Below are positions 9,270 to 30,436 of a stretch of DNA of 64,000 bases, one piece after another. Below the pieces are notes generated by a model. The model had not been told where the DNA came from and searched no databases. It saw only the letters and a program-made list of their open reading frames with translations. Each line of letters opens with the position of its first letter. Within the stretch, counting starts at the first letter, position 1. Origin of the DNA: Maritimibacter alkaliphilus (lineage in GTDB: Bacteria > Pseudomonadota > Alphaproteobacteria > Rhodobacterales > Rhodobacteraceae); assembly GCF_019801605.1 (NCBI RefSeq), contig NZ_JAHVIT010000003.1, positions 310,001 through 374,000 of the forward strand, read 5' to 3'. The translations under genes and the position numbers were made by a program.

Positions 9270-9286
9270 GTGTCTTCACACGCGGC

Positions 9287-10407: not shown

Positions 10408-10411
10408 GGGA

Positions 10412-11944: not shown

Positions 11945-12023
11945 GATGGGTCCCCATGGCTCTAGTGCGATTTTCCGGGACCATAGTGGAGCGGCGCGCG
12001 CGCTCAAAGAAGAATCCGGCATA

Positions 12024-12071
12024 TTTGCAAACCATTGGCAATGCGGCTTTTGCAAATTGCAAATATGCAAA
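12024..12071. promoter_or_regulatory. Cluster of TTTGCAAA-type boxes between pccB and the MFS gene
   Basis: Exact TTTGCAAA occurs at 12024-12031 and 12049-12056. Degenerate copies are TTGGCAAT (12035-12042), ATTGCAAA (12056-12063) and TATGCAAA (12064-12071). In Rhodobacter sphaeroides the ScfR protein PccR recognises TTTGCAAA repeats in front of pccB. The spacing here does not match an exact N4 pair. The boxes lie 80-127 bp upstream of the pccB start and 64-111 bp upstream of the divergent MFS start. Confidence 0.75.
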
Positions 12072-12134
12072 GTCGGCCCGTGCCCGCCCCTACAGGGGAT
12101 AGACAAGACGCCAGCCGCGCCATACGAGAATTGC

Positions 12135-13358: not shown

Positions 13359-13443
13359 CCGCGGCTACGACGGCAGCTACAACGGCGGGCGCGACAGCCA
13401 TTGCGACCGCAGGCAGGCCGTCAAAACAGCTTGTTAACCACAG

Positions 13444-13491
13444 TTTGCAAAGCTAGCGTCTCCGGCACCCGGGGCGCAGCAAATCTGCAAA
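13444..13491 (+). promoter_or_regulatory. TTTGCAAA-type boxes upstream of pccR
   Basis: An exact TTTGCAAA (13444-13451) and a degenerate TCTGCAAA (13484-13491) lie 53-100 bp upstream of the regulator start. They match the boxes in front of pccB, which fits autoregulation. The gap before them (13359-13443) otherwise holds a weak 12-bp periodic stretch. Confidence 0.6.
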
Positions 13492-13543
13492 GCCATCCCC
13501 GGACGACAGGACGCGGCACCACCCGCGGCGGAGGGGACAGGAC

Positions 13544-16282: not shown

Positions 16283-16397
16283 GACATCTGCATACAGTAA
16301 CGCCCGATTCCGACAACCCCCCAGAGTTGAAAATGAAACGGACGAAGCCAGATTGAAGTGCGGCCCGGGACACCGGCAAGGCCGCGAACGGGCGGGC

Positions 16398-16997
16398 TCA
16401 GAACTGCCCGCGCAGGAGGCTGAAGGCGACGCTCCACATGACCAGCCCCACGAGGACGTCGAGCACCCGCCACGCCACCGGCCGCGCAAAGAGCGGCGCC
16501 AGCAGGCGCGCGCCGTAACCCAGCGAGAAGAAGAAGACGAGCGAGGCGCTCATCCCGCCCGCGGCGAAGCCCAGCTTGTCATAGGGCGCCGAGACCGCGC
16601 CCATCAGCACCAGCGTATCGAGGTAGACATGCGGGTTGCCCCAGGTGAGCAGCAGGCAGGTGGCCAGCGCCCGGCCAAGGCTCTGCCCGCCCTGCCCCGC
16701 GGCCTCCAGCACCTCGCCGCCGCGCCACGCGTTGCGGAAGGCCATCGCACCGTAAACCAGCAGGAAGGCCGCCCCGCCCCATGTCATCACCGGCTCCAGC
16801 CAGACGACCCGGGCCGTCAGCGCGCCGAAGCCCGCCACGCCGGCGCCGATCAGCAGGGCATCGGAGAGGCTGCAGACAAGGCAGATCCAGAAGACATGCT
16901 CGCGCCGCAGCCCCTGCCGCAGCACGAAGGCGTTCTGCGCCCCGATCGCCACGATGAGCGAGAGGCCCAGCCCGAACCCTGCCAGATATGCCTGCAT
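16398..16997 (-). CDS. LysE/ArgO-type amino acid exporter
   Basis: An inner-membrane exporter of 199 residues with about six spans. The family signature near the N terminus is GLGLSLIVAIGAQNAFVLRQGLRR, followed by CSLSDALLIGAGVAG. The central TWGNPHVYLDTLVLMG segment is the diagnostic LysE/ArgO motif. It exports basic amino acids such as lysine or arginine in characterised members. The ATG at 16995-16997 is preceded by GGAGCAGG. It is divergent from the M20 hydrolase and 115 bp upstream of the EamA gene on the same strand. No adjacent LysG-type regulator is present. Confidence 0.88.
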   Translation of the reverse strand: MQAYLAGFGLGLSLIVAIGAQNAFVLRQGLRREHVFWICLVCSLSDALLIGAGVAGFGALTARVVWLEPVMTWGGAAFLLVYGAMAFRNAWRGGEVLEAAGQGGQSLGRALATCLLLTWGNPHVYLDTLVLMGAVSAPYDKLGFAAGGMSASLVFFFSLGYGARLLAPLFARPVAWRVLDVLVGLVMWSVAFSLLRGQF

Positions 16998-17276
16998 CCC
17001 TGCCTGCTCCTTGCGCACACCCGACCGCTGCCTGCGGCCCCGGAGGGCCTTCCTATCCCGCACGGTGGTGCGACCCAAGCCTTGTTTTTCAGGGCCCCAC
17101 CCGGAATGTGCCCCGGCGCATAGATCCGGGTCATGCGCCATATCGCCAGCTTTTATTGGTCAGCCTCCGCGCGGCGTGCTTCGCTCACCCGGAACCGACG
17201 CCTGCGGCCCGGGACCGGGCGCGCGGCCCATGGGCCCGGCAGGATCGACACAACAGAAAAACAGGGATCAAGACAG

Positions 17277-18521
17277 ATGGATGCAGCGCAGGACATGCGG
17301 CAGGGGATCGACGAGGCGCGGCTGTGGTCCGACCTGATGACCATGGGCGCCATCGGCGGCACGGCGGGTGGCGGCTCCATGCGGCCCGCGCTGTCGGATG
17401 CGGACCGGGAAGGCCGCGCGCTCTTCCGCCACTGGGCGCAGGAAGCGGGGCTGGAGCTGCGCACCGACCGGATCGGCAACATCTTCGCCCGCCGCCCGGG
17501 AACCGACCCGACGGCCAAGCCGGTGATGATCGGCAGCCACCTCGACACCCAGATGCCCGGCGGCAAGTTCGACGGCGTGCTGGGGGTTCTGGCCGGGCTG
17601 GAGGTCTGCCGCGCGCTGACCCGCGCCGGGGTCGAGACCACGCGCCCGATCGAGGTGGTGAACTGGACCAACGAGGAAGGCGCCCGCTTCCAGCCCGGCG
17701 TCATGGGCTCGGCCGTGCATGCCGGCACGCTGGCGCTGGAGGAGGCGCTGGCCCGCACCGACCCGCAGGGCCGCGTGCTGGGGGCGGAGCTTGAGCGCAC
17801 CGGTCAGGCAGGCGATGCCGCCGTGCCCGGCGACGCGCCCGAGGCCTATTACGAACTGCACATCGAACAGGGCCCCGAACTGGAGGCCGAGGGGCTGGAC
17901 GTGGCCATGGTCACCCGGTCCTCGGCCATGTGTTCCGGCTATGCCACGATCAACGGCCAGAACGGCCATACGCAGACGCTGGCCATGCCGCTGCGCCGCA
18001 ATGCCCTCGTCGCCGCCGCGCAGATGATCCTCGCCATCGAGGCGATCGGCGCCTCGGTCGCCCCCGAAGGCATGGTCAGCGCCTCGGTCGTCGAGAACTG
18101 GCCCAACAACCGGGTGAACATCCCGCATCTGACCAAGCTCAGCTGGGCCGTCGTCCACATGGACCCGGCGGGCCGCGACGAGATCGTGGCGCGGATCGAG
18201 GCCGAGGTCGCCCGGATCACCGCGGAGACCGGGCTCGACATCGCGCTGGAGCACAAGCACTACCGCGAGCCCTGCATCTTCGACGCCGACCTGATCGCGG
18301 CGGGCGCGGCGAAGGCGGCGGAGATGGGCCTTGCCTGCAAGACCATGCCCACGCTGACGGCCCATGACGCGCTGACCCTGTCGTCGCGCTGCCCCACGGC
18401 GCTGATCTTCGTGCCCTGCCGGGGTGGCGTCTCCCACAGCGAGGCGGAATGGTGCACGGCACAGCAGGCCGCCAAGGGGGCGGAGCTGCTTCTGGCGATG
18501 GTCCGCGACGCGGCCGCCTGA
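17277..18521 (+). CDS. M20 family amidohydrolase (hydantoinase/carbamoylase, allantoate amidohydrolase type)
   Basis: A binuclear metal enzyme of 414 residues that hydrolyses N-carbamoyl or related amide bonds. All metal ligands are present: His88 (SHLDT), Asp99 (GKFDG), Glu134 (NEEGARF), His195 (HIEQGP) and His387 (GGVSHSEAE). The bridging spacing 88-99-134 equals that of E. coli allantoate amidohydrolase. The dimer-domain motif usually written HAGTTPM is here HTQTLAM (231-237), keeping the His but not the Ala-Gly. That suggests a non-standard substrate. The ATG at 17277 gives the normal length. It starts a run of co-directional genes through 30379 and is followed by a LysR gene. Confidence 0.88.
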   Translation: MDAAQDMRQGIDEARLWSDLMTMGAIGGTAGGGSMRPALSDADREGRALFRHWAQEAGLELRTDRIGNIFARRPGTDPTAKPVMIGSHLDTQMPGGKFDGVLGVLAGLEVCRALTRAGVETTRPIEVVNWTNEEGARFQPGVMGSAVHAGTLALEEALARTDPQGRVLGAELERTGQAGDAAVPGDAPEAYYELHIEQGPELEAEGLDVAMVTRSSAMCSGYATINGQNGHTQTLAMPLRRNALVAAAQMILAIEAIGASVAPEGMVSASVVENWPNNRVNIPHLTKLSWAVVHMDPAGRDEIVARIEAEVARITAETGLDIALEHKHYREPCIFDADLIAAGAAKAAEMGLACKTMPTLTAHDALTLSSRCPTALIFVPCRGGVSHSEAEWCTAQQAAKGAELLLAMVRDAAA

Positions 18522-18540
18522 GCCCCGGCAGATGCCTCTG

Positions 18541-18564
18541 GATTGCCCGTTCCGACGGGCAATC
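18541..18564. terminator. Perfect ten-base hairpin after the M20 gene
   Basis: GATTGCCCGT (18541-18550) pairs exactly with ACGGGCAATC (18555-18564) around TCCG. It begins 20 bp after the stop codon. No long T tract follows, so termination is likely but may be partial. Confidence 0.6.
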
Positions 18565-18697
18565 CGCCTGAAATTCCCGCAGCCGCGACGCAGTTTGCCC
18601 GCGGCCCTCACAGGCGCTTGACCTTCAAGGCGGCGCCTGATCGGTGGACTTTCCCCCGGGGCGGCCCTAGGCTGAGACACCGGCCGGGCCACCTGAC

Positions 18698-19675
18698 ATG
18701 AGGATCATGATGCGGGACGTTGGGTTTTCCCACCTCGACTGGAATCTGCTGCGCACCTTCGTGACGATCGCGCAGTCGAATTCCATCACCGATGCCGCGC
18801 AGCGGCTGCACCTGACGCAGCCGGCAGTGTCTGTCAGCCTCAAACGGCTGGAAGAGCAGGTCGGCCACCGGCTCATCGAACGCTCCTCGACCATGTTCGA
18901 GCTGACCTCCGCCGGGCGCAGCCTGCTGGCCGAGGCGCTGGAGATCACCGCCGCGGTGTCGCGTCTGCCCGCCAGCCTCGGCGCCGCCGAGAAGGTGCTG
19001 ACCGGCGAGGCGACCATCGTGATGGCCTCGCACATCACCTGTGACGAGTTTGACGCCGGGCTGGAGGCCTTCCACCGCCGCCATCCGCAGGTCCGCCTGA
19101 CACTGCAGGTCGAAGCCTCCCGGGAGGCGCTTGCCATGGTGGCCGCGCGCAAGGCCGAGATGGCGATCTGCCTGATCGGCGAGCGCAACCCGCAGCTGGA
19201 GTACAACTTCCTGTTCCAGGAACACTTCGGCCTCTACTGCGGGCCGACGCACCCCTTCTATGGCCGCAGTGACCTGACCATGGCCGATCTGGCGGGGCAG
19301 GACAGCGTCGGCTACCTGACCGAGCGCAGCGATCAGGCGATGCGGGAACTGGCCGCGCTGCGCCTGCGCACCGGGCTGAACCCCGTGGTTGTGGGCACCT
19401 CCCACAACCTCGAAGAGGTCAAGCGCATGGTGATCGCGGGATTCGGCATCGGCCCCCTGCCCGTGCACTGCGTCGAAGCCGACGTTCTGGCCGGGCGACT
19501 CTGGCGCCTGCCGCCCTTCGAAAGCACCCCGCGGGCCGAGATCTACTTCGTCACCCATCCGCCGTCGCTGCGCAGTCGCATAGAAAATGAACTGCACCGC
19601 GCCTTCGCGGAACAGGCGGACAAGCGCCCGCCCGAGGCGCGCGTCTACGGACAGCACAGCCCGCTGCAGCGATAA
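18698..19675 (+). CDS. LysR family transcriptional regulator
   Basis: A regulator of 325 residues. The N-terminal winged helix-turn-helix is typical (WNLLRTFVTIAQSNSITDAA, QRLHLTQPAVSVSLKRLEEQ). The C-terminal periplasmic-binding-like effector domain starts near residue 105 (GEATIVMASHITCDEF). Three closely spaced ATGs (18698, 18707, 18710) could start it, and the sequence around GAGGATC may favour a later one. It is co-directional with and directly upstream of the ABC importer genes. A T-N11-A-like site lies in the gap before them, so it is the natural candidate regulator of the catabolic block. The effector is unknown. Confidence 0.88.
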   Translation: MRIMMRDVGFSHLDWNLLRTFVTIAQSNSITDAAQRLHLTQPAVSVSLKRLEEQVGHRLIERSSTMFELTSAGRSLLAEALEITAAVSRLPASLGAAEKVLTGEATIVMASHITCDEFDAGLEAFHRRHPQVRLTLQVEASREALAMVAARKAEMAICLIGERNPQLEYNFLFQEHFGLYCGPTHPFYGRSDLTMADLAGQDSVGYLTERSDQAMRELAALRLRTGLNPVVVGTSHNLEEVKRMVIAGFGIGPLPVHCVEADVLAGRLWRLPPFESTPRAEIYFVTHPPSLRSRIENELHRAFAEQADKRPPEARVYGQHSPLQR

Positions 19676-19701
19676 AATTCAGCATTGTAAGGGAATTATG
19701 A

Positions 19702-19727
19702 CGCCCCCGCGCCGCGGGCCGGGGGCG
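19702..19727. terminator. GC hairpin after the LysR gene
   Basis: CGCCCCCG (19702-19709) pairs with CGGGGGCG (19720-19727) 26 bp after the LysR stop codon. It could separate the regulator from the ABC importer transcript. No T tract is seen. Confidence 0.5.
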
Positions 19728-19780
19728 CATATCCCCGTGTCATGGGCCTGCATAGCAGGGGGTAATGCGATCTATTCGTG

Positions 19781-19798
19781 ATTATAATTCGACATAAT
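19781..19798 (+). promoter_or_regulatory. Candidate LysR-type operator before the ABC importer
   Basis: The AT-rich inverted repeat ATTAT-N8-ATAAT (19781-19798) contains T-N11-A spacing, the core of LysR-type sites. It stands out in an otherwise GC-rich 248-bp gap, 126-143 bp upstream of the binding-protein start codon. Confidence 0.45.
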
Positions 19799-19923
19799 GG
19801 AACGCGCTTCGCAGTCTTGAAAGTAGGACGACAGATGTCCTGAAACCTCTGGCGCCTCCCACCGGGACGCGCTCACCCAGACAAGGCCGGACACACGGCC
19901 ACTTCAACAGGAAGGTCTACAAG

Positions 19924-21492
19924 ATGCTTTCAACGACCGCGATGCGACGCGCGGCGATCGCTGCCGCTTGCTCGATTGCTGCCACCTCCGGCATGGCCCA
20001 GGAAACGCCCGTCAAGGGCGGCCGGCTTGACCTCGTGGTGCAGCCCGAACCCACCAGCCTGATGATCGGCATCACCACCAACGGGCCCAGCCTGCTGGTC
20101 GGCGGTTCGATCTACGAAGGCCTGCTGCGCTACGACGAGAACCTCGAGCCGATGCCCTCGCTGGCCAAGAGCTGGGAGATCTCCGAGGACGGCCTGACCT
20201 ACACGTTCCACCTGCAGGAAGGCGTGACCTTCTCCGACGGTGAGCCCTTCACCTCCAAAGATGTCGTCTTCACCATGAAGGACTTCCTCATGGAGACGAA
20301 GTCCAAGTGGCGCGCCATCATGGAGCCGGTCGCCGACGTGACCGCGCCCGACGACACGACCGTCGTCGTGACCATGAAAGAGCCCTTCGGCCCCTTCATC
20401 CGCTCGCTCAGCTACAACGTGGCCCCGATGGTCCCCGCCCACGTCTACGAGGGCACGGAATACGCGACCAACCCGGCCAACGACACCCCGATCGGCACCG
20501 GCCCCTACGTTCTGGCCGAGTGGAAGCGCGGCTCCTACATCGAGCTGGACGCGAACCCGAACTACTGGCGCGAGGGCCTGCCCTACCTTGATGACGTCGT
20601 CTATCACGTCGTGCCCGATGCCGCTTCGCGCGCCACGGCCTTCGAGACCCGCGTCGTCTCCGTGCTGCCCGGCGGCTCGGTCGAGAACTTCGACATCCCG
20701 CGTCTGGCCGCCGAAGAAGGCGTCTGCACCACCGAGAAGGGCTGGGAATACAACGCGCCCCTGTCGTGGATGTGGATCAACAACCGCACCGCACCGATGG
20801 ACAACAAGAAGTTCCGTCAGGCGATCATGTACGCGATGAACCGCGAGATGATGCTGAAGGTGCTGTGGAACGGCTATGGCAAGGTTGCCACCGGTCCGAT
20901 CACCTCGACCATCCCGTTCTACGACGCGGTCGAGCCGACCTACGAGTACAACCCCGAGAAGGCCAAGGAGCTGCTCGAAGAGATCGGCTACGACGGCAAG
21001 GAACTGCGCCTGCTGCCGCTGCCCTACGGCGAAACCTGGCAGCGTTGGGCCGAGGTCGTGAAACAGAACCTCAAGGCCGTCGGCATCCCGGTCGAGATCG
21101 AATCCACCGACGTTGCCGGCTGGAACCAGAAGACCTCGCAGTGGGACTATGACCTCGCCTTCACCTACCTCTACGAGAACGGTGACCCGGCGATCGGCGT
21201 GGCACGGAACTACATCTCCAGCCAGATCGCGCTCGGCAACCCGTTCAACAACGTCGAGGGCTACTCGAACCCGAAGGTTGACGAACTCTTTGCCAAGGCG
21301 GCCACCGCCCCCTCCGACGAGGAGCGTCAGGCAGCCTACACCGAGGTGCAGAAAATCCTGCAGGAAGACGTGCCGGTCGCATGGCTGACCGAGCTCAGCT
21401 TCCCGACCCTCTACGACTGCTCGGTGCAGGGCCTCGTCTCGACGGCCAACGGCATCGGCAACTCGCTCGGCGAGACCTGGATCAAGAAGTAA
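19924..21492 (+). CDS. ABC transporter periplasmic binding protein, peptide/nickel (SBP family 5)
   Basis: A periplasmic receptor of 522 residues. A signal peptide (about residues 1-25, ending SGMA-QE) precedes an SBP_bac_5 domain with the family motif block GGSIYEGLLRYDENLEPMPS, LAKSWEISEDGLTYTFHL and VTFSDGEPFTSKDVVFT. C-terminal landmarks are KFRQAIMYAMNREMM and NPEKAKELLEEIGYDG. These receptors bind di- or oligopeptides, glutathione, opines or other amide-like ligands, and the real ligand cannot be read from sequence. AGGAAGG lies nine bases upstream of the ATG. A large stem-loop follows the stop codon. Confidence 0.93.
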   Translation: MLSTTAMRRAAIAAACSIAATSGMAQETPVKGGRLDLVVQPEPTSLMIGITTNGPSLLVGGSIYEGLLRYDENLEPMPSLAKSWEISEDGLTYTFHLQEGVTFSDGEPFTSKDVVFTMKDFLMETKSKWRAIMEPVADVTAPDDTTVVVTMKEPFGPFIRSLSYNVAPMVPAHVYEGTEYATNPANDTPIGTGPYVLAEWKRGSYIELDANPNYWREGLPYLDDVVYHVVPDAASRATAFETRVVSVLPGGSVENFDIPRLAAEEGVCTTEKGWEYNAPLSWMWINNRTAPMDNKKFRQAIMYAMNREMMLKVLWNGYGKVATGPITSTIPFYDAVEPTYEYNPEKAKELLEEIGYDGKELRLLPLPYGETWQRWAEVVKQNLKAVGIPVEIESTDVAGWNQKTSQWDYDLAFTYLYENGDPAIGVARNYISSQIALGNPFNNVEGYSNPKVDELFAKAATAPSDEERQAAYTEVQKILQEDVPVAWLTELSFPTLYDCSVQGLVSTANGIGNSLGETWIKK

Positions 21493-21515
21493 CCCTTCCT
21501 GATCGTTTTCTCCCC

Positions 21516-21546
21516 AGCCGGGTGCGTGCCCTCCACGCATCCGGCT
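21516..21546 (+). promoter_or_regulatory. 13-bp intercistronic stem-loop after the binding-protein gene
   Basis: AGCCGGGTGCGTG (21516-21528) pairs with CACGCATCCGGCT (21534-21546), with one G-T wobble and a five-base loop. Such stem-loops after binding-protein genes commonly protect the upstream mRNA and lower permease expression. Confidence 0.7.
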
Positions 21547-21578
21547 CCCTCACTACCCCCGACCACGGGACCTGACCC

Positions 21579-22547
21579 ATGCTCCGATTCATCCTGGGAC
21601 GGATGGTCAAGATCGCTCTGATCCTCCTGGCCATTACCATCCTGAACTTCTGCCTGATTCACATGGCGCCGGGCGATCCCGCGCTTGTCATGGCCGGGGA
21701 AGCCGGCGATGCCGACCCGAAATTCATCGAAGACCTGCGCGCCCAATTCGGCCTCGACAAGCCGTTCATCGTGCAGCTCTGGACTTATGTCAGCCATTTC
21801 GCCACCGGCGACCTCGGCTTCTCCTATCGCCAGCAGATGCCGGTCAGCGAACTGATCCTCGACCGCCTGCCCGCGACCCTGCTGCTGTCGATCTCGGCCT
21901 TCCTGATCTCCCTCATCCTCGGCGTCGTGGCCGGCGTCATCGCCGCCGCCCGTCAGGGCAAGGCCTCCGACAGCATCATCTCGACCATCGCGCTGCTGTT
22001 CTACGCCACGCCGCTGTTCTGGATGGCGCTGATGGCGGTGCTGCTCTTCTCGGTCCAGCTGGGCTGGATGCCTGCCTTCGGCTACGAGACCGCGGCCTCC
22101 GACATGACGGGCCTTGCCCGGATGCTGGACATCGCGCACCACCTGATCCTGCCCTCGGTCGTGCTGGGGCTCTTCTTCATGGCGACCTACGTGCGGATCA
22201 CCCGCGCCTCCATGCTGGAAGTGAACCGCCTCGACTTCGTCAAGACGGCCCGCGCCAAGGGTCTGAAACCCTCGGTCATCCAGCGCCGCCACGTGCTGCG
22301 CAACGCGATCCTGCCCGTCGTCACCCTTGCCGGTCTTCATGCCGGCCAGCTTGTCGGCGGCGCGGTCCTGATCGAGACCGTCTTCGCATGGCCCGGCATC
22401 GGCCGGCTGATGTTCGAAGCGCTTCAGAGCCGTGACTACAACGTCCTGCTCGGCGTCTTCACCGTCTCGGCCGCGCTCGTGCTGATGTTCAACCTGATCA
22501 CGGACTTCACCTACCGTATCGTCGACCCGAGGATCCGCCTGAAATGA
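21579..22547 (+). CDS. ABC transporter permease, DppB/GsiC type
   Basis: An inner-membrane permease of 322 residues with six predicted spans. The N-terminal FILGRMVKIALILLAITILN is the standard first helix of DppB-like permeases. The large periplasmic loop has the APGDPA start motif. The cytoplasmic EAA loop is FVKTARAKGLKPSVIQRRHV. It pairs with the next gene, which overlaps it by four bases (ATGA), so the two are translationally coupled. Confidence 0.95.
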   Translation: MLRFILGRMVKIALILLAITILNFCLIHMAPGDPALVMAGEAGDADPKFIEDLRAQFGLDKPFIVQLWTYVSHFATGDLGFSYRQQMPVSELILDRLPATLLLSISAFLISLILGVVAGVIAAARQGKASDSIISTIALLFYATPLFWMALMAVLLFSVQLGWMPAFGYETAASDMTGLARMLDIAHHLILPSVVLGLFFMATYVRITRASMLEVNRLDFVKTARAKGLKPSVIQRRHVLRNAILPVVTLAGLHAGQLVGGAVLIETVFAWPGIGRLMFEALQSRDYNVLLGVFTVSAALVLMFNLITDFTYRIVDPRIRLK

Positions 22548-23383
22548 GCAACTTCTGGACAACCTTCAAAGGCAACAAGGGCGCCGTCGTCGGTCTCGTC
22601 ATCCTCGCGATCGTCCTGCTGGCCAGCATCTTTGCCCCGATGCTCTACACCACCTCGCCCTGGGACATGGTCAACATGCCCTTCATGGCGCCCGGCGTGG
22701 ACAGCTCCGTGCCGCTCGGCACCGATACGCTGGGCCGCGACATCGCCTCGGGCCTTGCCCACGGCGCCTACATCTCGCTGCTGGTCGGCTTCGTCTCGAC
22801 CATCGTCAGCCTCTGCATCGGCATCCCCCTGGGCGCCGCGGCAGGCTACTTCGGCGGCTGGGTGGATGACGTGCTGATGCGGATCACCGAGTTCTTCCAG
22901 GTGATCCCCTCCTTCGCCTTCGCCATCGTGCTGGTCGCGATCTTCGAGCCCTCGATCACCTCCATGATCGTTGCCATCGCCGTCGTCAGCTGGCCCCCCG
23001 TGGCCCGTCTGCTGCGCGGCGAGGTGATGTCGCTGAAACACCGCGAGTTCATCGAGGCGGCCGAGCTCTCGGGCCAGTCGGGCTTCACGATCATCACCCG
23101 CCAGATCCTGCCGAACACGATCTCTCCGGTGATCGTTCTGGCCTCGATGATGGTCGCCACTGCGATCCTGACCGAAAGCGCGCTCTCCTTCATGGGCCTT
23201 GGCGATCCGAACGTGATGAGCTGGGGCTACATCATCGGCGCTGGCCGGACCGTGCTGCAACAGGCGTGGTGGATCAGCTTCTTCCCCGGTGTTGCGATCC
23301 TGCTGACCGTGCTTGCCTTCAACCTGATCGGCGAGGGGCTGAACGACGCCCTGAACCCGCGCCTTGCCAAACGGAGGGGCTGA
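22544..23383 (+). CDS. ABC transporter permease, DppC/GsiD type
   Basis: The second permease, 279 residues, with six spans. Family markers are the periplasmic LGTDTLGRDIASGLAHGAYI motif of DppC proteins and the EAA loop REFIEAAELSGQSGFTIITR. It completes the membrane channel with the preceding gene. Its stop codon (23381-23383) lies one base from the ATPase start. Confidence 0.95.
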   Translation: MSNFWTTFKGNKGAVVGLVILAIVLLASIFAPMLYTTSPWDMVNMPFMAPGVDSSVPLGTDTLGRDIASGLAHGAYISLLVGFVSTIVSLCIGIPLGAAAGYFGGWVDDVLMRITEFFQVIPSFAFAIVLVAIFEPSITSMIVAIAVVSWPPVARLLRGEVMSLKHREFIEAAELSGQSGFTIITRQILPNTISPVIVLASMMVATAILTESALSFMGLGDPNVMSWGYIIGAGRTVLQQAWWISFFPGVAILLTVLAFNLIGEGLNDALNPRLAKRRG

Positions 23384-23384
23384 G

Positions 23385-24995
23385 ATGACCGATCCGATCG
23401 TTCGTATCGAAAACCTGAAGATCGCGCTGCCCGAAGGGGCGGACCGGCCCTACGCCGTGGACACCTGCAGCTTCGACCTCTTCCCCGGCAAGATCCTCTG
23501 CGTGGTGGGCGAATCCGGGTCGGGCAAGTCCATGTCGGCCAACGCGCTGATGGGCCTGCTGCCCGAGGGCGTCCATGTCTCCGACGGGCGTATCCGCCTG
23601 GGCGAGCGTGACCTTGTCGGGCTGACCGACGAGGAAATGCGCGACCTGCGCGGCCGCCGCGTCGCGATGATCTTCCAGGAGCCGCTGTCGGCCCTCAACC
23701 CGCTGATGCGGATCGAGGACCAGATCGCGGAGGTCTTCGAGGCCCACGGCCTGCTGAAACCGGCCGAGCGCAAGAAGCGCGCCGTGGAGCTGCTGACCGA
23801 AGTCGGGCTGCCCGATCCGGCCCGCGCCGCACGGGCCTATCCGCACCAGCTTTCGGGCGGGCAGCGGCAGCGTGTGGTCATCGCCATGGCGCTTGCGCTG
23901 GAGCCGGAAGTGCTGGTGGCGGACGAGCCGACCACCGCGCTCGACGTGACGACGCAGGCGCAGATCCTCGAACTGATCCGCACCCTGCAGGTCGAGCGGA
24001 ACATGGCCGTGATGTTCATCACCCATGACTTCGGCGTCGTGGCCGAGATCGCGGACCATGTCACCGTGATGCAGCTTGGCAAGATCGTCGAGGAAGGCCC
24101 CGCGGCCAAGGTGCTGTCGAACCCGCAGCACCCCTATACCCGCAAGCTGATCGACGCGATCCCCAAGCTGCGCGCCGGGCGCGCCGCCGCCCCCGCGCGC
24201 GAGCCGCTGATGGAAGTGAAGGGCGTCTCCAAGACCTACCGCTCCGGCGGCGGGCTGTTCCGCCCGGTGCGCGAAGTGCACGCCGTGAAGGACATCAACC
24301 TGACCATCGGCCGGGGCGAGACCATCGGCATCGTGGGCGAAAGCGGCTCGGGCAAGTCCTCCTTCGGGCGCTGCCTCGTGCGGCTTCAGGACACCGACGA
24401 GGGCCAGATCCTGCTGGGCGATCAGGACATCACCAAGGCGCAGGGCAAGGACCTTCAGGAACTGCGCGCCAAGGTCCAGATGATCTTCCAGGACCCCTAC
24501 AGCTCGCTCAATCCGCGCATCCGGGTGGGCCGCACCATCGCGGACGGCCCCATCGCCCACGGCACCCCCGTGGCGCAGGCCATGGCCGAGGCGGATGCCC
24601 TGCTGGAACGCGTGGGCCTGCCCGGCGCTGGCAAGCGCTATCCGCACGAGTTCTCGGGCGGTCAGCGGCAGCGGATCGGCATTGCCCGCGCGCTTGCGCT
24701 CAAGCCGCAGGTGATCGTCGCGGACGAGGCCGTCTCGGCGCTCGACGTGTCGATCCAGGCGCAGGTGCTGGAGCTTCTCGACGAACTCAAGCGCGAACTC
24801 GACCTCTCGCTGGTCTTCATCACCCACGACCTGCGCGTCGCAGCCCAGATCTGTGACCGCGTGATGGTGATGCAGAAGGGCGAATGCGTCGAGATCGGCC
24901 CGGGCTCGCAGGTCTTCGACAACCCCAGCCACCCCTACACCCGGTCCCTCATCGAGGCGATCCCGGGCAAGGACTGGGACGCCGAGGCGGCCTGA
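23385..24995 (+). CDS. Fused two-domain ABC transporter ATPase, GsiA-like
   Basis: A cytosolic protein of 536 residues in which DppD- and DppF-like ATPases are joined, as in GsiA. Each half has a Walker A motif GESGSGKS (residues 42-49 and about 319-326), an ABC signature SGGQRQR (near 156 and 422), and a Walker B with ADEPTTALD or ADEAVSALD. The oligopeptide-ABC C-terminal extension is visible as [15 protein letters not shown] and [22 protein letters not shown] precedes the ATG. It powers the importer made by the two permease genes. A nine-base hairpin lies downstream. Confidence 0.95.
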
Positions 24996-25025
24996 GGGCC
25001 GTCCCGCGACAGGTATATCAGCATA

Positions 25026-25048
25026 CCCCGCCCGCAGGACGGGCGGGG
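25026..25048 (+). promoter_or_regulatory. Nine-base hairpin between the importer and aminotransferase genes
   Basis: CCCCGCCCG (25026-25034) pairs perfectly with CGGGCGGGG (25040-25048) around CAGGA, 26 bp before the aminotransferase start. No T tract follows. It could set relative expression of transporter and enzyme genes. Confidence 0.6.
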
Positions 25049-25073
25049 ACACCACCAGTGAAGGAACTCTCCC

Positions 25074-26441
25074 ATGGATGCGAAGGTCAAACCCGCACCG
25101 AATTCGCCCGAGGCGCGCGACATCGCCTACCACATGCACCCCTCCGTCGACCTGAAGCGCTATGAGGACGAGGGCGGCCTGATCATCGAGAAGGGCAAGG
25201 GGATCTACGTCTACGACAACGCCGGCAACAAGTACATCGAAGGCCTTGCCGGGCTGTGGTCCGTGGCCGTGGGCTTCGACGAGGAACGCCTCGCCGACGT
25301 GGCCTACCAGCAGATGCGCAAGCTGCCCTACTACCACAACTTCAACTACAAGGCCGTGGGCCCCGCCGTGGACCTCGCCGAGAAGCTGGTGGAAATCTCG
25401 CCCGAGCACATCAAGAAGGTGCACTTCACCTCCTCCGGCTCGGAAGCGAACGACCTGATCGTCAAGATGATCTGGTACCGCTCGAACGCGCTGAACAAGC
25501 CCGAGAAGAAGAAGATCATCGGCCGCAAGAAGGCCTACCACGGCGTGACCATCGCAGCCGGTTCCGTCACCGGCCTCGCGCCGAACCACACCAGCTTCGA
25601 CCTGCCGCTGGATCGCATGATCCACACCGAAACCCCGGACTACCCCCGCGATCACCTCGAGGGCGAGACCGAGGAGCAGTTCTCGGCCCGCATGGCACAG
25701 GCGCTCGAAGACCTGATCCTCGCCGAAGGCCCCGAGACCATCGCCGCCATGTTCGGTGAGCCGGTCATGGGCGCGGGCGGCGTGATCGTTCCGCCGAAGG
25801 GCTACTGGGACGGCATCCAGGCCGTGTTGAAGAAATACGACATCCTGCTGGTGGCGGACGAGGTCATCTGCGGCTTTGGCCGGACCGGCAAGATGTTCGC
25901 CTGCGAGACCTACGGCATCAAGCCCGACGTCATCACCACCTCGAAGCAGCTGTCCTCCTCCTACATGCCGCTTTCGGCCATCCTGATGAGCCAGGAGTTC
26001 TACGCGCCGATCGCCGAGGAAAGCCACCGTCTGGGCGTCTTCGGCCATGGCTTCACCGCCTCGGGCCACCCCGTCGCCACCGCCGTGGGCCTCGAGAACG
26101 TCAAGATCATCGAAGAGCGGGACCTCGTCGGCAATGCCGCGCGGATGGAGAAACCCTTCCTCGCGCGTCTCAAGAAGCTGGAAGACCACGGCCAGACCCT
26201 CTGGTCGCGCGGCGTGGGCCTGATCGGCGCGATCGAGCTCAAGCCGGGCGAGAAGCCGGGCCTGATGGGGCCGAAGGCACAGGCACACCTGCTCAAGCAG
26301 GGCGTCATCTGCCGCGCCATCGGCGACGCGCTGTGCTTCTGCCCGCCGCTGATCATCACCGAAGAGCAGATCAACGTCATGTTCGACGCCGTCGAGCGCG
26401 CGCTGGACGATCTGGCCGCCGAGCTGGCTGAGGAGGCCTGA
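25074..26441 (+). CDS. Class III PLP-dependent aminotransferase (omega-transaminase type)
   Basis: A cytosolic enzyme of 455 residues. The PLP lysine is Lys291 (TTSKQLSSSYMPLSA), the pyridine-N Asp is Asp262 (VADEVICGFGRTG), and the phosphate-binding SSGSEAND is at 120-127. LWSVAVGF near residue 61-68 is typical of omega-amino acid or amine:pyruvate transaminases. The likely reaction is transfer of an amino group from an amine or omega-amino acid to pyruvate. A more exact substrate cannot be given. GAAGGA precedes the ATG. The amidase starts five bases after the stop codon, so these two enzymes are co-expressed. Confidence 0.9.
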   Translation: MDAKVKPAPNSPEARDIAYHMHPSVDLKRYEDEGGLIIEKGKGIYVYDNAGNKYIEGLAGLWSVAVGFDEERLADVAYQQMRKLPYYHNFNYKAVGPAVDLAEKLVEISPEHIKKVHFTSSGSEANDLIVKMIWYRSNALNKPEKKKIIGRKKAYHGVTIAAGSVTGLAPNHTSFDLPLDRMIHTETPDYPRDHLEGETEEQFSARMAQALEDLILAEGPETIAAMFGEPVMGAGGVIVPPKGYWDGIQAVLKKYDILLVADEVICGFGRTGKMFACETYGIKPDVITTSKQLSSSYMPLSAILMSQEFYAPIAEESHRLGVFGHGFTASGHPVATAVGLENVKIIEERDLVGNAARMEKPFLARLKKLEDHGQTLWSRGVGLIGAIELKPGEKPGLMGPKAQAHLLKQGVICRAIGDALCFCPPLIITEEQINVMFDAVERALDDLAAELAEEA

Positions 26442-26446
26442 GACCC

Positions 26447-27880
26447 ATGGCCGACGTGATGGAAAAGACCGATCTGGGCGAAATGAGCGCCACCGAGCTG
26501 ACCGCGGCCTATGCCGCGGGAACGGCCTCGCCGGTCGAGGCGGTGCAGGCGGCGCTGGCACGGATCGAGACGTTCGACGGGGCGGTCAACGCCTTCGTCA
26601 CCGTGGTTGCGGACGAGGCGATCGCCGAGGCCCGCGCCTCGGAGGCACGCTGGAAGGCGGGCAAGCCGCTGTCGCCCATCGACGGGGTGCCGGCGACGAT
26701 CAAGGAACTGACCCGCGTGAAGGGCATCCCCTTCCGCAAGGGTTCGATCCTCGGCGAGACGGACCCCTCCGAGACCGATCTGGAGATCGTGGTGAAACTG
26801 CGCGAGGCCGGCACGCCGATCCTCGGCACCACCACCTCGCCGGAATTCGGCTGGAAGGGTCTGACCCACGGTCCCGTGGGCGGCAACACCGTGAACCCCT
26901 GGGACACCACGCGCGCCTCGGGCGGTTCCTCGGGCGGTGCGGCCGTCGCGGCGGCGCTGAACATGGGCGTGCTGCACGAAGGCTCCGACGGGGCGGGCTC
27001 GATCCGCATTCCGTCGTCCTTCTGCGGCGTCTTCGGCATCAAGCCGACCTTCGGCTGGGTGCCCTCCACCGGCCCCACCGGCCTCGCTGAGCTGGCCCAC
27101 CGCGGCCCGCTGACCCGCAAGGTCGAGGACTCGGGCCTCTTCCTGAACGCGGTCGCCGGTCCCTCGGTCAACGCGCTCTACGGTCGCTCGCCCGCACAGG
27201 TGCCGGACTTTGCCGCGGCCTGCCGCAAGGGGCCCGAGGGCATCAAGGGCATGCGCATCGGCTATGCCCGCACGCTGGCCGGCGCACCGGTCGACCCGCA
27301 GGTCGCCGCTGCCGTGGACCGCGCGGCAGAGCGCATGGCTGCCATGGGCGCCATCGTCGAGGAGGCCGATCCCGGCTTCGCCTCGCCGCAGAAGGCGCTG
27401 CTGGACCTCTGGTACGCCGCGCAGGCCTGGGCCGTCGAACAGGCGAACCCGACGCCCGAGCAGCGCGAGAAGATGGACCCCGGTTTCCTCTCGATCACCG
27501 AGCAGGGGCGCCTGCTGTCGGCCCGCGATTTCATCTCCGCCGATCAGGTCCGCGCGCAGCTCAAGGTCACGATGGCGAAGTTCCACCAGACCTACGACGC
27601 GCTCATGCTGCCGACGATGCCGCTGGTGGCCTTCGAGGCCGGTGTGGACGTGCCGCGGGACTCGGGCATGACCGAGTGGACCGACTGGTCGCCCTTCACC
27701 TATCCGTTCAACATGACGGAGCAGCCCGCCGTGTCGGTGAACTGCGGCTTCGATGCCGACGGCCTGCCGATCGGCCTGCAGTTCGTGGGCCGCTGGTTCG
27801 AGGACGAGACCGTTCTGGCCCTCGCCGCCGCCTATCAGGCGATGCACCCCGAGGCCTTCCCCTCGGCCCCGCGCGACTAA
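26447..27880 (+). CDS. Amidase signature family hydrolase
   Basis: A Ser-cisSer-Lys amidase of 477 residues that hydrolyses a carboxamide or N-acyl amide. The triad is Lys86 (TIKELT), Ser161 (GGSSGG) and Ser185 (GAGSIRIPS). Spacings of 75 and 24 equal those of GatA. GatA function is excluded because gatB and gatC are absent and the length and neighbours differ. The DGAGS motif replaces the usual DTGGS, a conservative change. The ribosome binding site is GAGGAGG inside the aminotransferase 3' end. Together with the M20 hydrolase it is the obvious candidate for freeing an amine from the imported substrate. Confidence 0.9.
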   Translation: MADVMEKTDLGEMSATELTAAYAAGTASPVEAVQAALARIETFDGAVNAFVTVVADEAIAEARASEARWKAGKPLSPIDGVPATIKELTRVKGIPFRKGSILGETDPSETDLEIVVKLREAGTPILGTTTSPEFGWKGLTHGPVGGNTVNPWDTTRASGGSSGGAAVAAALNMGVLHEGSDGAGSIRIPSSFCGVFGIKPTFGWVPSTGPTGLAELAHRGPLTRKVEDSGLFLNAVAGPSVNALYGRSPAQVPDFAAACRKGPEGIKGMRIGYARTLAGAPVDPQVAAAVDRAAERMAAMGAIVEEADPGFASPQKALLDLWYAAQAWAVEQANPTPEQREKMDPGFLSITEQGRLLSARDFISADQVRAQLKVTMAKFHQTYDALMLPTMPLVAFEAGVDVPRDSGMTEWTDWSPFTYPFNMTEQPAVSVNCGFDADGLPIGLQFVGRWFEDETVLALAAAYQAMHPEAFPSAPRD

Positions 27881-27894
27881 GGCCCCAACGCAAC

Positions 27895-27922
27895 CGGCCG
27901 GGCCCTGCAACGGGCCCGGCCG
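27895..27922 (+). promoter_or_regulatory. 11-bp hairpin between amidase and kinase genes
   Basis: CGGCCGGGCCC (27895-27905) pairs perfectly with GGGCCCGGCCG (27912-27922) with loop TGCAAC. It lies within the 61-bp gap and 20 bp before the kinase start. There is no T tract, so a processing, stability or attenuation element is more likely than a terminator. Confidence 0.6.
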
Positions 27923-27941
27923 ACAGCGAAAGCAGAAGAGA

Positions 27942-29015
27942 ATGACTGAACGCGATGCAGCGTTGACCCGGGCGCTGGAGCTGGCCGGGCAAGGTGGTCT
28001 TGCCACCGATTTCACCCGTCTGACCGCCGAGGAGGCCGCAGGCATCTGCCGCGATCTCTACGGGTTGGAGGGCACGCTCGACCGGCTCGACACCGAGAAG
28101 GACGATACCTTCCGCCTGACCACGGATCAGGGCCGCTTCATCCTCAAGGTGGCCAATCCCGACGAGGCCGAGAGCGAGCTGGACCTGCAACTCGCCGCCC
28201 TGCGGCACCTCGAAGAGACCGGCTTCCCCATCGACGTGCCCCGCGCCGTACCGCTGCAAGCGGGCGGTTACATCGCGCGGCTTGCCGGTTCCGACCGGCT
28301 GGTGCGGATGATGACCTATGTCGAGGGCGAGATGGTCGAGGATGCCGGGCTGGACGCCAACCAGCGGTATCACTACGGCCGTGCCCTTGCCGAGCTGCGC
28401 CTGGCGCTCGCCGCCTTCTCGCATCCCGCGCAGGGCCGCGTGCTGGCCTGGGATGTGCGTCACGCGGGCATCCTGCGCCCGCTGCTGACCCAGATCGACA
28501 CCACGCCCGAGCGCGTCGCCCTGGCCGAGGCGGTCTTTGACCGGCTGGCCGCGCTGCAACCGCGCATCGACGCGCTGCCCCGGCAGGTGGTGCACAACGA
28601 TTTCCGCGGCAACAACCTCGTCGGCGATCCCGCCACGCCCGAGTTCATCACCGGCATCATCGACTTCGGCGACGTGGTGGAAACCGCGGTGGCCATCGAC
28701 CTCTCCACCGCCGTGATGAACCAGATGCTGCGGGATTTCCCGCCCGAGGCCGACATCTTCGCCCCCTCCCGCGCGGTGGTGGAGGGCTATGCTGCCCACG
28801 CCCCCATCGGCGAGGAAGAGCTGGCCATGGTGCCGCACCTCGTCATGGCCCGCGTGTTGCTGCGCGCGGTGATGAACGAATGGCGCGCCGCCCTGATGCC
28901 GAACAACCGCGAGTATATCCTGCGCAATTCCGGGCCCAGCTGGGGACAGCTGGCATGGTTCATCGCGCGCCCGGTCGAGGAGATCTCGGCCCTTCTCCTG
29001 CCCTGCCCCACCTGA
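27942..29015 (+). CDS. APH-fold phosphotransferase resembling hydroxylysine kinase
   Basis: A protein-kinase-like small-molecule kinase of 357 residues. The ATP lysine is Lys69 (FILKVAN), the catalytic loop is HNDFRGNN with Asp220, and the metal Asp is Asp241 (GIIDFGD). Features recalled from the hydroxylysine kinase (AGPHD1/HYKK) branch rather than antibiotic APHs are YGLEGTLDRL before the ATP loop, GFPIDVPR, RMMTYVEGE, and the C-terminal NREYILRNSGPSWGQL. The predicted reaction is O-phosphorylation of an amino alcohol. AGAAGAG precedes the ATG. It is followed after 11 bp by a phospho-lyase-like gene, the expected partner. The exact substrate (hydroxylysine, ethanolamine, aminopropanol or another) is not determined. 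Confidence 0.8.
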   Translation: MTERDAALTRALELAGQGGLATDFTRLTAEEAAGICRDLYGLEGTLDRLDTEKDDTFRLTTDQGRFILKVANPDEAESELDLQLAALRHLEETGFPIDVPRAVPLQAGGYIARLAGSDRLVRMMTYVEGEMVEDAGLDANQRYHYGRALAELRLALAAFSHPAQGRVLAWDVRHAGILRPLLTQIDTTPERVALAEAVFDRLAALQPRIDALPRQVVHNDFRGNNLVGDPATPEFITGIIDFGDVVETAVAIDLSTAVMNQMLRDFPPEADIFAPSRAVVEGYAAHAPIGEEELAMVPHLVMARVLLRAVMNEWRAALMPNNREYILRNSGPSWGQLAWFIARPVEEISALLLPCPT

Positions 29016-29026
29016 AGGACACAGCC

Positions 29027-30379
29027 ATGAACACCCAGAGCGCCCCCTCCGGCGGCAAGATGGTCAACAGCTTCGACCCCGGCACGACCCGCGACCTCGA
29101 CCCCGTCCTCGCGGACCGGATCGAGCGGCGGCAGCGTCTGCTGGGACCGGCCTATCGCCTGTTCTACAAGGAGCCGCTGACCGTGGCCCGGGGCGAGGGC
29201 GCGCTGCTCTTCGATCCCGAGGGCAACGATTACCTCGACGCCTACAACAACGTGGTGTCGCTGGGCCATTCGCACCCCCGCGTGGTGGAGGCGATCACCA
29301 AACAGCTGGGCGTGCTCTGCACCCATACCCGCTACGTGCAGGAAAGCATCCTGACGCTGGCCGAGACGATGCTGCCCTCCTTCGGCGGCACGATCGCGCG
29401 GGACGGGCACATGATGTTCACCTGCACCGGCTCCGAGGCGAATGACCTCGCCACGCGGATCGCGATGCACAAGACCGGCAAGCGCGGCGTGATCGTGACC
29501 GCCGAGGCCTATCACGGCAACTCGCACCTGACGGCGGGCTATTCTCCCTCGCTGGGGGGCAAGTCGCCGCTGGGAACCTGGGTGCGCCGCGTGGCCGGGC
29601 CGGACAGCTATCGCCATGACCCCGCCACGCTGGGACAGAAGATGGCGGCCGAGGTGAAGGCGCAGATCCTCGAACTGGAACGCCATGGCGACGGGATCGC
29701 CTGTTTCATTGCGGATGGGCTCTTCTCGTCGGACGGGATCTATTCCCATCCCACCGACCTGCTGGCCCCGGTGGCCGCGGTGGTGCGCGAACACGGCGGT
29801 CTCTACATCGCGGACGAGGTCCAGTCGGGCTTTGCCCGCTCGGGCGAGGCGATGTGGGGCTATCAGCGCCACGGGCTCGACCCCGATATCGTGACGATGG
29901 GCAAGCCCATGGGCAACGGCTACCCGGTGGCGGGCATGGCGATCCGGCACGAGGTGATCGAGGGCTTCGGCGCCGACACGCGCTACTTCAACACCTTCGG
30001 CGGCAACACCGTGGCAGTGGCCGCGGCGCAGGCGGTCTTCGACACGATCCGCGACGAGAAGTTGCAGGAGAACTCGCTGAAGATGGGCACGCTGATGCGC
30101 GAGGGGCTGGAGGCGATCGCCAAGAAGGACGGACGGATCGGCGATGTACGTGGGTCGGGCCTCTACGTGGCCTGCGAGTTCGTGACCGACCACGCGGCCA
30201 AGACGCCCGACGCGGCGACCGCCGGGGCCTGCGTCAACGGGATGCGCGAGGAACGGGTGCTGATCTCGGCCACGGGGCCGGATGCGAACATCCTCAAGAT
30301 CCGCCCGCCGCTGATCTTCACCGAGGCGCATGTCGACCGGTTGCTGAGCACGGTCGAGAAGGTCCTCGCCAAGATCTGA
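29027..30379 (+). CDS. Class III PLP enzyme of the AGXT2L/amino-alcohol phosphate phospho-lyase branch
   Basis: A protein of 450 residues. The fold is class III aminotransferase: GSEAND (135-140), Asp263 (IADEV) and PLP Lys293 (TMGKPMGNGYP). Segments match those I recall from AGXT2L1/2 phospho-lyases: RQRLLGPAYRLFYKEPL near the N terminus, GHSHPRVVEA, YFNTFGGN, RIGDVRGSGLYVACE and ISATGPDANILKIRPPL. Those enzymes eliminate phosphate and ammonia from phosphoethanolamine or 5-phosphohydroxylysine, giving an aldehyde. The directly upstream kinase supports this over transamination. GAAGGACA precedes the ATG. It ends the catabolic block before a strong bidirectional terminator. Confidence 0.8.
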   Translation: MNTQSAPSGGKMVNSFDPGTTRDLDPVLADRIERRQRLLGPAYRLFYKEPLTVARGEGALLFDPEGNDYLDAYNNVVSLGHSHPRVVEAITKQLGVLCTHTRYVQESILTLAETMLPSFGGTIARDGHMMFTCTGSEANDLATRIAMHKTGKRGVIVTAEAYHGNSHLTAGYSPSLGGKSPLGTWVRRVAGPDSYRHDPATLGQKMAAEVKAQILELERHGDGIACFIADGLFSSDGIYSHPTDLLAPVAAVVREHGGLYIADEVQSGFARSGEAMWGYQRHGLDPDIVTMGKPMGNGYPVAGMAIRHEVIEGFGADTRYFNTFGGNTVAVAAAQAVFDTIRDEKLQENSLKMGTLMREGLEAIAKKDGRIGDVRGSGLYVACEFVTDHAAKTPDAATAGACVNGMREERVLISATGPDANILKIRPPLIFTEAHVDRLLSTVEKVLAKI

Positions 30380-30436
30380 GGGGCCGTCCGCCGGCCCCCT
30401 CCCCAGCCGCTGCCCGTCGCGGTGGCGCTCAACGAG

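What the first reader, a model, noticed from the sequence alone, without database searches (positions are those of the whole stretch)
17277..30379. Candidate uncharacterised catabolic system for an amide- or peptide-bound amino alcohol
Eight co-directional genes plus a LysR regulator combine a peptide-type ABC importer, two amide hydrolases of unrelated families (M20 amidohydrolase and amidase signature), a class III transaminase, an APH-fold amino-alcohol kinase and an AGXT2L-type phospho-lyase. Each family is known, but I do not know a described pathway using this set. A coherent scheme is import, hydrolytic release of an amino alcohol or hydroxy amino acid, O-phosphorylation, and elimination of phosphate and ammonia to an aldehyde, with the transaminase handling a second amino group. 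The known kinase/phospho-lyase chemistries are ethanolamine phosphate, 5-hydroxylysine and 1-amino-2-propanol. The last would give propionaldehyde and could feed the propionyl-CoA genes at 2-15 kb.
Basis: partly seen in the sequence, partly recalled or inferred. Interest (0 to 1): 0.78.

Follow-up and report, generated by a model that had tools for sequence, protein, structure and literature searches.

The report
Conserved amide-bound amino-alcohol catabolic operon
A marine-type bacterium carries a ten-gene set, most of it also found in soil and plant bacteria, that looks built to import a masked amino alcohol, unmask it and break it down with a kinase and a phosphate-removing enzyme; the exact compound is not yet known.

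Summary
Ten co-directional genes at 17277-30379 encode an M20 amidohydrolase, a LysR regulator, an Opp-type importer, a class III transaminase, an amidase, an APH-fold kinase and a phospho-lyase; catalytic motifs are intact. The block is not a chance neighbourhood. Of 24 genomes with an amidase orthologue (61-98% identical), 22 have the kinase/phospho-lyase pair directly after the amidase, one has it beside the M20 gene, and one keeps a lone kinase and a phospho-lyase elsewhere. Trees show that the pair of Pseudooceanicola/Thioclava and the pair of the rhizobial-type operons have separate origins, so the pair was recruited or swapped into the same operon; this supports a working kinase-then-lyase step. 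His favoured product, propionaldehyde from 1-amino-2-propanol, is not: the propionyl-CoA genes are not conserved neighbours. Related clusters put the transporter or the pair beside an HDAC-fold (acetylpolyamine-type) deacylase, an agmatinase-type ureohydrolase or a basic-amino-acid importer, which favours a masked hydroxy-diamine or hydroxy basic amino acid, with ethanolamine amides as main rival. Substrate unproven; new variant of a known kind.

The parts
17277..18521 (+). M20-family Zn amidohydrolase, hydantoinase/carbamoylase branch
   Evidence: TIGR01879 341.9 bits (cut-off 204); GSHLDT, NEEG, HIEQG and SHSE motifs present; orthologue in 12 of 24 relative loci plus a partial one at the edge of L111
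18698..19675 (+). LysR-type regulator; most rhizobial copies have a GntR/FCD regulator instead
   Evidence: PF00126 and PF03466; LysR orthologue in L100-L102 and L126; GntR/FCD gene in 18 of 24 loci
19924..21492 (+). periplasmic solute-binding protein, SBP_bac_5 (Opp/Dpp/Nik class)
   Evidence: PF00496 311.8 bits; model pLDDT 82.6; SBP_bac_5-type fold matches, best 5isu (CtaP)
21579..22547 (+). ABC permease, DppB/OppB type
   Evidence: PF00528 and PF19300
22544..23383 (+). ABC permease, DppC/OppC type, overlaps the previous gene by 4 bases
   Evidence: PF00528 and PF12911; spacing
23364..24995 (+). fused DppD-DppF type ATPase (true start may be the ATG at 23385)
   Evidence: two ABC_tran stretches; two Walker A motifs
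25074..26441 (+). class III omega-transaminase
   Evidence: NF004767 705.5 bits (cut-off 517); best solved relative 5ghf, E 5.5e-179; TSKQL motif with the presumed PLP lysine
26447..27880 (+). amidase-signature hydrolase
   Evidence: PF01425 312.5 bits; NF004815 555.1 bits (cut-off 506); TIKE, GGSSGG and GSDGAGSIR motifs
27942..29015 (+). APH-fold small-molecule kinase, likely amino-alcohol O-kinase
   Evidence: PF01636 101.1 bits; HNDFRGNN and IIDFG motifs; relatives lie within 0.7 kb of a lyase in 18 of 18 loci L035-L052
29027..30379 (+). AGXT2L-type PLP phospho-lyase, likely removing phosphate and ammonia
   Evidence: 5g4i 337.6 bits and 6tor 292.0 against 169.4 for the best transaminase; TMGKPMGNG motif; tree

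Best explanation
A catabolic operon, patchily spread across distant bacteria, for an N-masked vicinal amino alcohol. The Opp-type transporter imports a small amide-like compound. The amidase, and perhaps the M20 enzyme in a second step, removes the acyl or carbamoyl-type mask. The omega-transaminase takes off a far amino group. The APH-fold kinase phosphorylates the hydroxyl next to the remaining primary amine, and the PLP lyase expels phosphate and ammonia, leaving an aldehyde on the carbon that bore the amine. Shown here: gene content, catalytic motifs, family placement, conservation, and separate origins of the kinase/lyase pairs in the same operon. Inferred: order of steps, substrates, product. 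The most likely substrate class is a masked hydroxylated diamine or basic amino acid (2-hydroxyputrescine, 4-amino-3-hydroxybutyrate or hydroxylysine type), because related clusters put the same transporter family or the same enzyme pair beside an HDAC-fold (acetylpolyamine-type) deacylase, an agmatinase-type ureohydrolase or a lysine/arginine/ornithine-type importer.
For: Operon found in 24 genomes of six families and in identical order on a Thioclava plasmid. Kinase and lyase of the Pseudooceanicola/Thioclava operons and of the rhizobial-type operons are separate groups; one common clade is rejected (AU p 4.4e-10 for the lyase, 0.0056 for the kinase; quick trees). P. endophyticus keeps a rhizobial-type kinase by its cluster (59% identity, inside that group), and the rhizobial-type pair also occurs in the rhodobacterium Falsirhodobacter (L121), which fits a swap inside the operon. 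SBP relatives (50-63% in the searches that found them) sit with HDAC-fold deacylases and, in varying sets, TA, M20 and a GhrA-like dehydrogenase; in a Comamonadaceae plasmid HDAC, kinase and lyase are consecutive. An agmatinase-type gene (TIGR01230 204, cut-off 174.3) directly precedes the pair in G090. The rhizobial-type lyases group with a Klebsiella plasmid lyase that lies near a lysine/arginine/ornithine-type SBP. An SSADH-like aldehyde dehydrogenase lies directly upstream of the operon in Winslowiella. The 14 lyases aligned share an arginine (R319) that neither A1RDF1 nor human ETNPPL has at that place, which would suit an anionic substrate.
Against: No substrate evidence exists. The solute-binding protein is at most 27% identical to the 50 structure matches listed. 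Many kinase/lyase pairs have other neighbours (xanthine/uracil permease, carboxyltransferase-type protein, MFS, pirin). An amidase at 48% identity occurs without the pair. No aldehyde dehydrogenase was recognised among the ten genes of the block. The transaminase is missing upstream of the amidase in 2 of 24 loci; M20 was seen complete in 12 of 24, with L111 partial. The GhrA-like dehydrogenase of 9 of 24 loci has no place in the scheme. The SSADH-like protein scores below the curated SSADH cut-offs (470.9 against 646.35). R319 was seen on an alignment only; as far as I recall human PHYKPL also lacks it, so it does not point to hydroxylysine.
Confidence: 0.55

Rival explanations
1. Same chemistry, but the amino alcohol is ethanolamine, taken up as an N-(2-hydroxyethyl) amide such as HEHEAA, a plant-associated ethanolamine derivative, or another N-acylethanolamine; the lyase makes acetaldehyde.
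For: The closest solved lyases are named phospholyase and ethanolamine-phosphate phospho-lyase (activity of A1RDF1 on phosphoethanolamine recalled). An Opp-class SBP, AapF, binds HEHEAA (7kz9); passages describe HEHEAA as a plant compound that a Pseudomonas endophyte senses. Many carriers belong to rhizosphere or plant genera by name.
Against: AapF is one of many about equally distant SBP matches (24%, rank 10 and 14). Ethanolamine gives no work to the transaminase and does not explain the agmatinase or HDAC-fold neighbours. All 14 aligned kinase-paired lyases carry R319 and a CxGSE motif where A1RDF1 and ETNPPL read NSGSE.
Confidence: 0.2
2. The amino alcohol is 1-amino-2-propanol and the propionaldehyde made feeds the propionyl-CoA genes at 2-15 kb.
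For: Known kinase/lyase chemistry (recalled); methylmalonyl-CoA mutase and propionyl-CoA carboxylase genes are in the window.
Against: No window gene outside the block was found in the 24 relative loci searched (best 94 bits), and an ScfR-type regulator lies near those genes. The described 1-amino-2-propanol cluster is a microcompartment locus with a dehydrogenase and a GabP permease (passages), a different gene set.
Confidence: 0.04
3. The conserved unit is the transporter, transaminase, amidase and M20; the kinase/lyase pair is an incidental passenger serving another pathway.
For: Pairs occur without this operon in many genomes; in L101 the pair is divergent from the operon and in L102 only a lone kinase remains.
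Against: Pair present in the cluster in 23 of 24 genomes, with separate origins. Three clusters with an HDAC-fold deacylase and a related transporter also carry a lyase next to a kinase or annotated phosphotransferase (L085, L130, L133).
Confidence: 0.12
4. The kinase inactivates an antibiotic-like amino compound and the class III protein is an ordinary transaminase, so the block is a scavenging and detoxification unit.
For: APH fold; one weak match to an aminoglycoside phosphotransferase model (19.1 bits).
Against: The class III protein matches phospho-lyases far better than transaminases; kinase relatives lie by a lyase in 18 of 18 loci L035-L052 and a fused family exists (NF004799; frames of about 1000 aa).
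Confidence: 0.05

Closest known systems
AGXT2L family: human ethanolamine-phosphate phospho-lyase (6tor), bacterial A1RDF1 (5g4i; that name recalled), and hydroxylysine kinase with phosphohydroxylysine phospho-lyase (recalled)
   Same: Kinase-then-lyase logic (recalled); sequence match 292-338 bits; PLP-lysine motif GKPMGNG
   Different: Here coupled to an importer, two amide hydrolases and an omega-transaminase; shared R319 and CxGSE differ from both solved enzymes
[quoted passage not shown]
   Same: Class III fold, elimination on a vicinal amino alcohol (passages of PMC8154272)
   Different: No kinase step; phosphonate gene neighbourhood; our lyase scores 174.4 bits against its cut-off of 525
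HDAC-fold (acetylpolyamine-amidohydrolase-like) deacylase clusters with a related Opp transporter
   Same: Related transporter (50-63%), and in varying sets TA, M20, GhrA-like dehydrogenase; some carry kinase and lyase
   Different: HDAC-fold deacylase in place of the amidase; often a class II aldolase; I know of no characterisation of these either
AapF/PipR HEHEAA uptake in Pseudomonas
   Same: Opp-class SBP for an ethanolamine amide (passages)
   Different: 24% identity; signalling system with peptidases and a LuxR; no kinase or lyase mentioned in the passages read
Omega-transaminases 5ghf and 6g4b group (6-aminohexanoate-type role recalled)
   Same: E 5.5e-179 and 1.7e-151 to the transaminase
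   Different: Natural substrate of ours unknown

Membership tests
AGXT2L-type phospho-lyase | closer to phospho-lyases than to transaminases | tested here: met
   337.6 and 292.0 bits against 169.4
AGXT2L-type phospho-lyase | phosphate elimination activity | not testable with these tools
   needs enzyme assay
AGXT2L-type phospho-lyase | paired with an APH-fold kinase | tested here: met
   18 of 18 loci L035-L052 (chosen by kinase hits); 23 of 24 amidase-cluster loci
N-carbamoyl amino acid hydrolase (M20 branch) | family score over cut-off and metal-site motifs | tested here: met
   TIGR01879 341.9 over 204; motifs
N-carbamoyl amino acid hydrolase (M20 branch) | equivalog-level score for one substrate | tested here: not met
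   all equivalog cut-offs listed are missed, e.g. ErtE 275.4 of 520
PbfA | NF049939 cut-off | tested here: not met
   174.4 of 525
Hydroxylysine degradation system | kinase and lyase specific for 5-hydroxylysine | not testable with these tools
   no specificity model; only a lysine/arginine/ornithine-type SBP near a distant pair
1-amino-2-propanol route into propionyl-CoA | conserved linkage to propionyl-CoA genes | tested here: not met
   no hit above 94 bits for outside genes in 24 loci of limited flank
AapF/HEHEAA importer | orthology of the SBP | tested here: not met
   24% identity, no better than other Opp-class SBPs

The most novel reading that the evidence does not exclude
A widespread, undescribed pathway by which plant- and coast-associated bacteria eat N-acylated hydroxy-diamines (for example hydroxycinnamoyl or acetyl 2-hydroxyputrescine/hydroxyagmatine), in which one end is removed by transamination and the amino-alcohol end by phosphorylation and phosphate-ammonia elimination to succinate semialdehyde or aminobutanal; different unmasking enzymes (amidase, HDAC-fold deacylase, agmatinase) are plugged onto one kinase/lyase core that was itself swapped within the operon.
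Probability: 0.2. Interest if true: 0.75.

Novelty: new variant of a known kind. Interest (0 to 1): 0.52.

Why it matters
Relatives of the kinase occur in 44 of 198 genomes sampled from the window's family, yet my paper searches found no study of what such kinase/phospho-lyase pairs do in bacteria. This operon gives a defined set of partner genes across six bacterial families, so the substrate can be found by testing few compound classes. If it is a hydroxy-diamine amide, it would be a new link between plant defence-type amides and bacterial nitrogen metabolism.

Tried and rejected
Propionyl-CoA link: no conserved neighbour. Amidase alone as marker: at 32-50% identity it is a broad family and a Tistrella copy at 48% has a different transporter and no annotated kinase or lyase within 9 kb, so I used it as diagnostic only at about 60% and more. 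L101 first looked like a cluster without the pair; the pair lay just outside the fetched stretch. L102 remains a real exception. Where the L101 pair belongs is unresolved: the lyase is rejected from the window group (p 0.015) but not from the rhizobial one (0.49), the kinase from neither (0.41, 0.16); so I do not claim a third independent origin. HEHEAA import as a direct reading of the structure match was rejected as the main explanation because Opp-class SBPs match about equally. In the kinase alignment the L038 row was in a wrong frame and was ignored. Rows dropped from the trees: L089 and L042 (duplicates), L110 and L112 (short contigs), and also L050 and L052 (long branches). An NGR234 plasmid stretch and the amidase loci (L136-L146) were fetched and not used; the Paraburkholderia stretch had no annotation and was read by family search only. 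Paper searches (ten, open-licence library only) found no description of this gene set; subscription papers are mostly not covered.
Full report
What is there. The window block 17277-30379 holds ten + strand genes: M20 amidohydrolase, LysR, SBP_bac_5, two permeases, a fused double ATPase, class III transaminase, amidase, APH-fold kinase and a phospho-lyase. Gaps from the transporter on are short: SBP-permB 86, permB-permC -4, permC-ATPase -20, ATPase-TA 78, TA-amidase 5, amidase-kinase 61, kinase-lyase 11 bases. Expected motifs are present in M20, kinase, transaminase, amidase, ATPase and lyase; which residues are catalytic is recalled family knowledge.

The lyase is not an ordinary transaminase by sequence. 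It matches the solved phospholyase 5g4i (337.6 bits) and human ethanolamine-phosphate phospho-lyase 6tor (292.0), against 169.4 for the best transaminase. The neighbouring transaminase is of another branch, with NF004767 at 705.5 bits and 5ghf as best solved relative.

Who has it. The window genome is a Pseudooceanicola relative: its cluster proteins are 95-99% identical to those of P. nanhaiensis. In the genus, 4 of 22 genomes have a lyase at E 1e-60 or better. G208 has the whole operon at 95-99%, and P. endophyticus has the operon without its lyase (L102). Among 198 genomes of the family, the best amidase outside the window genome is 43% identical, so the operon is rare in that sample. A single scan of about 85,000 species genomes with the amidase returned 25 loci; one (29%, L124) was dropped. 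The 24 kept belong to Paracoccaceae (Pseudooceanicola, Acidimangrovimonas, Falsirhodobacter), Rhizobiaceae, Stappiaceae, Aurantimonadaceae, Methylobacteriaceae and Erwiniaceae (Winslowiella), two without a family name. The scan finds close relatives only and these are not independent. A Thioclava plasmid has the same ten genes in the same order.

Conservation. Kinase and lyase directly follow the amidase in 22 of 24 loci. In Acidimangrovimonas (L101) the pair is divergent, next to M20, just outside the first fetched stretch. In P. endophyticus (L102) a lone kinase lies by the cluster, and its genome has one lyase elsewhere, 64% like the window's. The transaminase precedes the amidase in 22 of 24; L121 has one elsewhere in the locus, L122 none found. 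M20 is complete in the held sequence of 12 of 24 and partial in L111; a GntR/FCD regulator is in 18 and a GhrA-like 2-hydroxyacid dehydrogenase in 9. Two of the 24 loci (L110, L112) are short contigs that cut the operon.

The pair has separate origins. Outside the pair, window and rhizobial-type proteins are about 60-75% alike; kinase and lyase are only 32-38% and 48-53%. In trees of 51 lyases and 51 kinases the three Pseudooceanicola/Thioclava rows and the 19 rhizobial-type rows are separate groups, and holding all 22 together is rejected (lyase p 4.4e-10, kinase p 0.0056; quick trees). The lone kinase of P. endophyticus falls inside the rhizobial-type group, 59% identical to a member, and Falsirhodobacter, a rhodobacterium, has the rhizobial-type pair. 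The simplest reading is a swap of the pair inside the operon. A swap for the same two families argues that both enzymes are needed. Placement of the Acidimangrovimonas pair is unresolved.

What the pair and the transporter keep company with elsewhere. Relatives of the solute-binding protein in Rhodobacteraceae-type genomes and on plasmids (50-63%) sit with an HDAC-fold deacylase, and often with M20 or ArgE-type hydrolases, a GhrA-like dehydrogenase, a class II aldolase and a class III transaminase. Exceptions: no such deacylase is annotated near the relatives on the Neorhizobium and K84 plasmids (the K84 one is 45%), nor was one found in the short locus L087. Three of the HDAC loci also hold a lyase next to a kinase or annotated phosphotransferase (L085, L130, L133), and in L130 HDAC, kinase and lyase are consecutive. 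Nearer to the window pair, G090 has an agmatinase-type gene directly before it, and the window genome carries a second pair (51/65%) with M81, M20_dimer and another Opp transporter. The closest outside relative of the rhizobial-type lyases in the tree is on a Klebsiella plasmid, near a SBP related to histidine and lysine/arginine/ornithine binding proteins. Many other pairs have uninformative neighbours.

How it most likely works. Import; removal of an acyl or carbamoyl-type mask; transamination of a far amine; phosphorylation of the hydroxyl beside the free amine; elimination of phosphate and ammonia to an aldehyde. The elimination mechanism follows from the AGXT2L enzymes (recalled; general account in passages of PMC8154272). 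The masks implied by the neighbours (amide, acetyl-type, guanidine) would all free a primary amine, which a PLP lyase needs. An omega-transaminase plus these neighbours fits a diamine or basic amino acid better than ethanolamine. An aldehyde dehydrogenase of the SSADH-like group lies directly upstream of the Winslowiella operon, which fits an aldehyde product, though it misses the curated cut-offs.

Against a firm substrate. The SBP model (pLDDT 82.6) matches Opp-class SBPs about equally, at 27% identity or less in the 50 rows listed; one of them, AapF, binds the ethanolamine amide HEHEAA, so ethanolamine amides stay a serious rival. The kinase-paired lyases aligned here share R319 and a CxGSE motif that the two solved phospho-lyases lack; this may mean another substrate, but it is not a test. 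The aminopropanol/propionyl-CoA idea found no support.

Novelty. Each enzyme family is known; the operon as a unit was not found in ten searches of an open-licence paper library. I rate it a new variant of a known kind: a kinase/phospho-lyase amino-alcohol pathway coupled to amide import and unmasking.

Noticed in passing
G000:C2:1513001-1533000 (L035), outside the window: Second kinase/lyase pair of the same genome (51% and 65% identical) with an M20_dimer enzyme, an M81 (MlrC-type) protein and another Opp transporter; similar in G208 (L090), and a similar set with gamma-glutamyltransferase on a Thioclava plasmid (L127).
   Followed up: partly
L036:8320-11787: Agmatinase-type ureohydrolase, kinase and lyase in a row in a genome of the same family (G090).
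   Followed up: partly
L125 (NZ_LR890628.1 67440-96462): Klebsiella plasmid module: basic-amino-acid ABC importer, GntR regulator, kinase, lyase, EamA exporter among IS elements; 39 of 296 plasmid records with a kinase match are Klebsiella. Possibly hydroxylysine use; untested.
   Followed up: partly
L080-L086, L088, L099, L130-L133: HDAC-fold deacylase clusters with an Opp transporter, often with class II aldolase, M20/ArgE-type hydrolase and GhrA-like dehydrogenase, recurrent in rhodobacterial genomes and on Azospirillum, Nitratireductor, Paracoccus and Comamonadaceae plasmids.
   Followed up: partly
window 2075-14941: Methylmalonyl-CoA mutase, propionyl-CoA carboxylase alpha and an ScfR-type short-chain acyl-CoA regulator; looks like ordinary propionate metabolism.
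   Followed up: partly
window 15320-17000 (-): EamA and LysE exporter genes just upstream of the block, divergent from it; might export amino acids made in excess. No close match in the relative loci searched.
   Followed up: no
window 30377-30410: GC-rich inverted repeat directly after the lyase stop codon (GGGGCCG...CGGCCCC) without an obvious T run; a possible end of the transcript.
   Followed up: no
L102:17154-18383 (-): Lone rhizobial-type kinase beside the cluster of P. endophyticus, next to a LuxR-type gene, without its lyase.
   Followed up: partly
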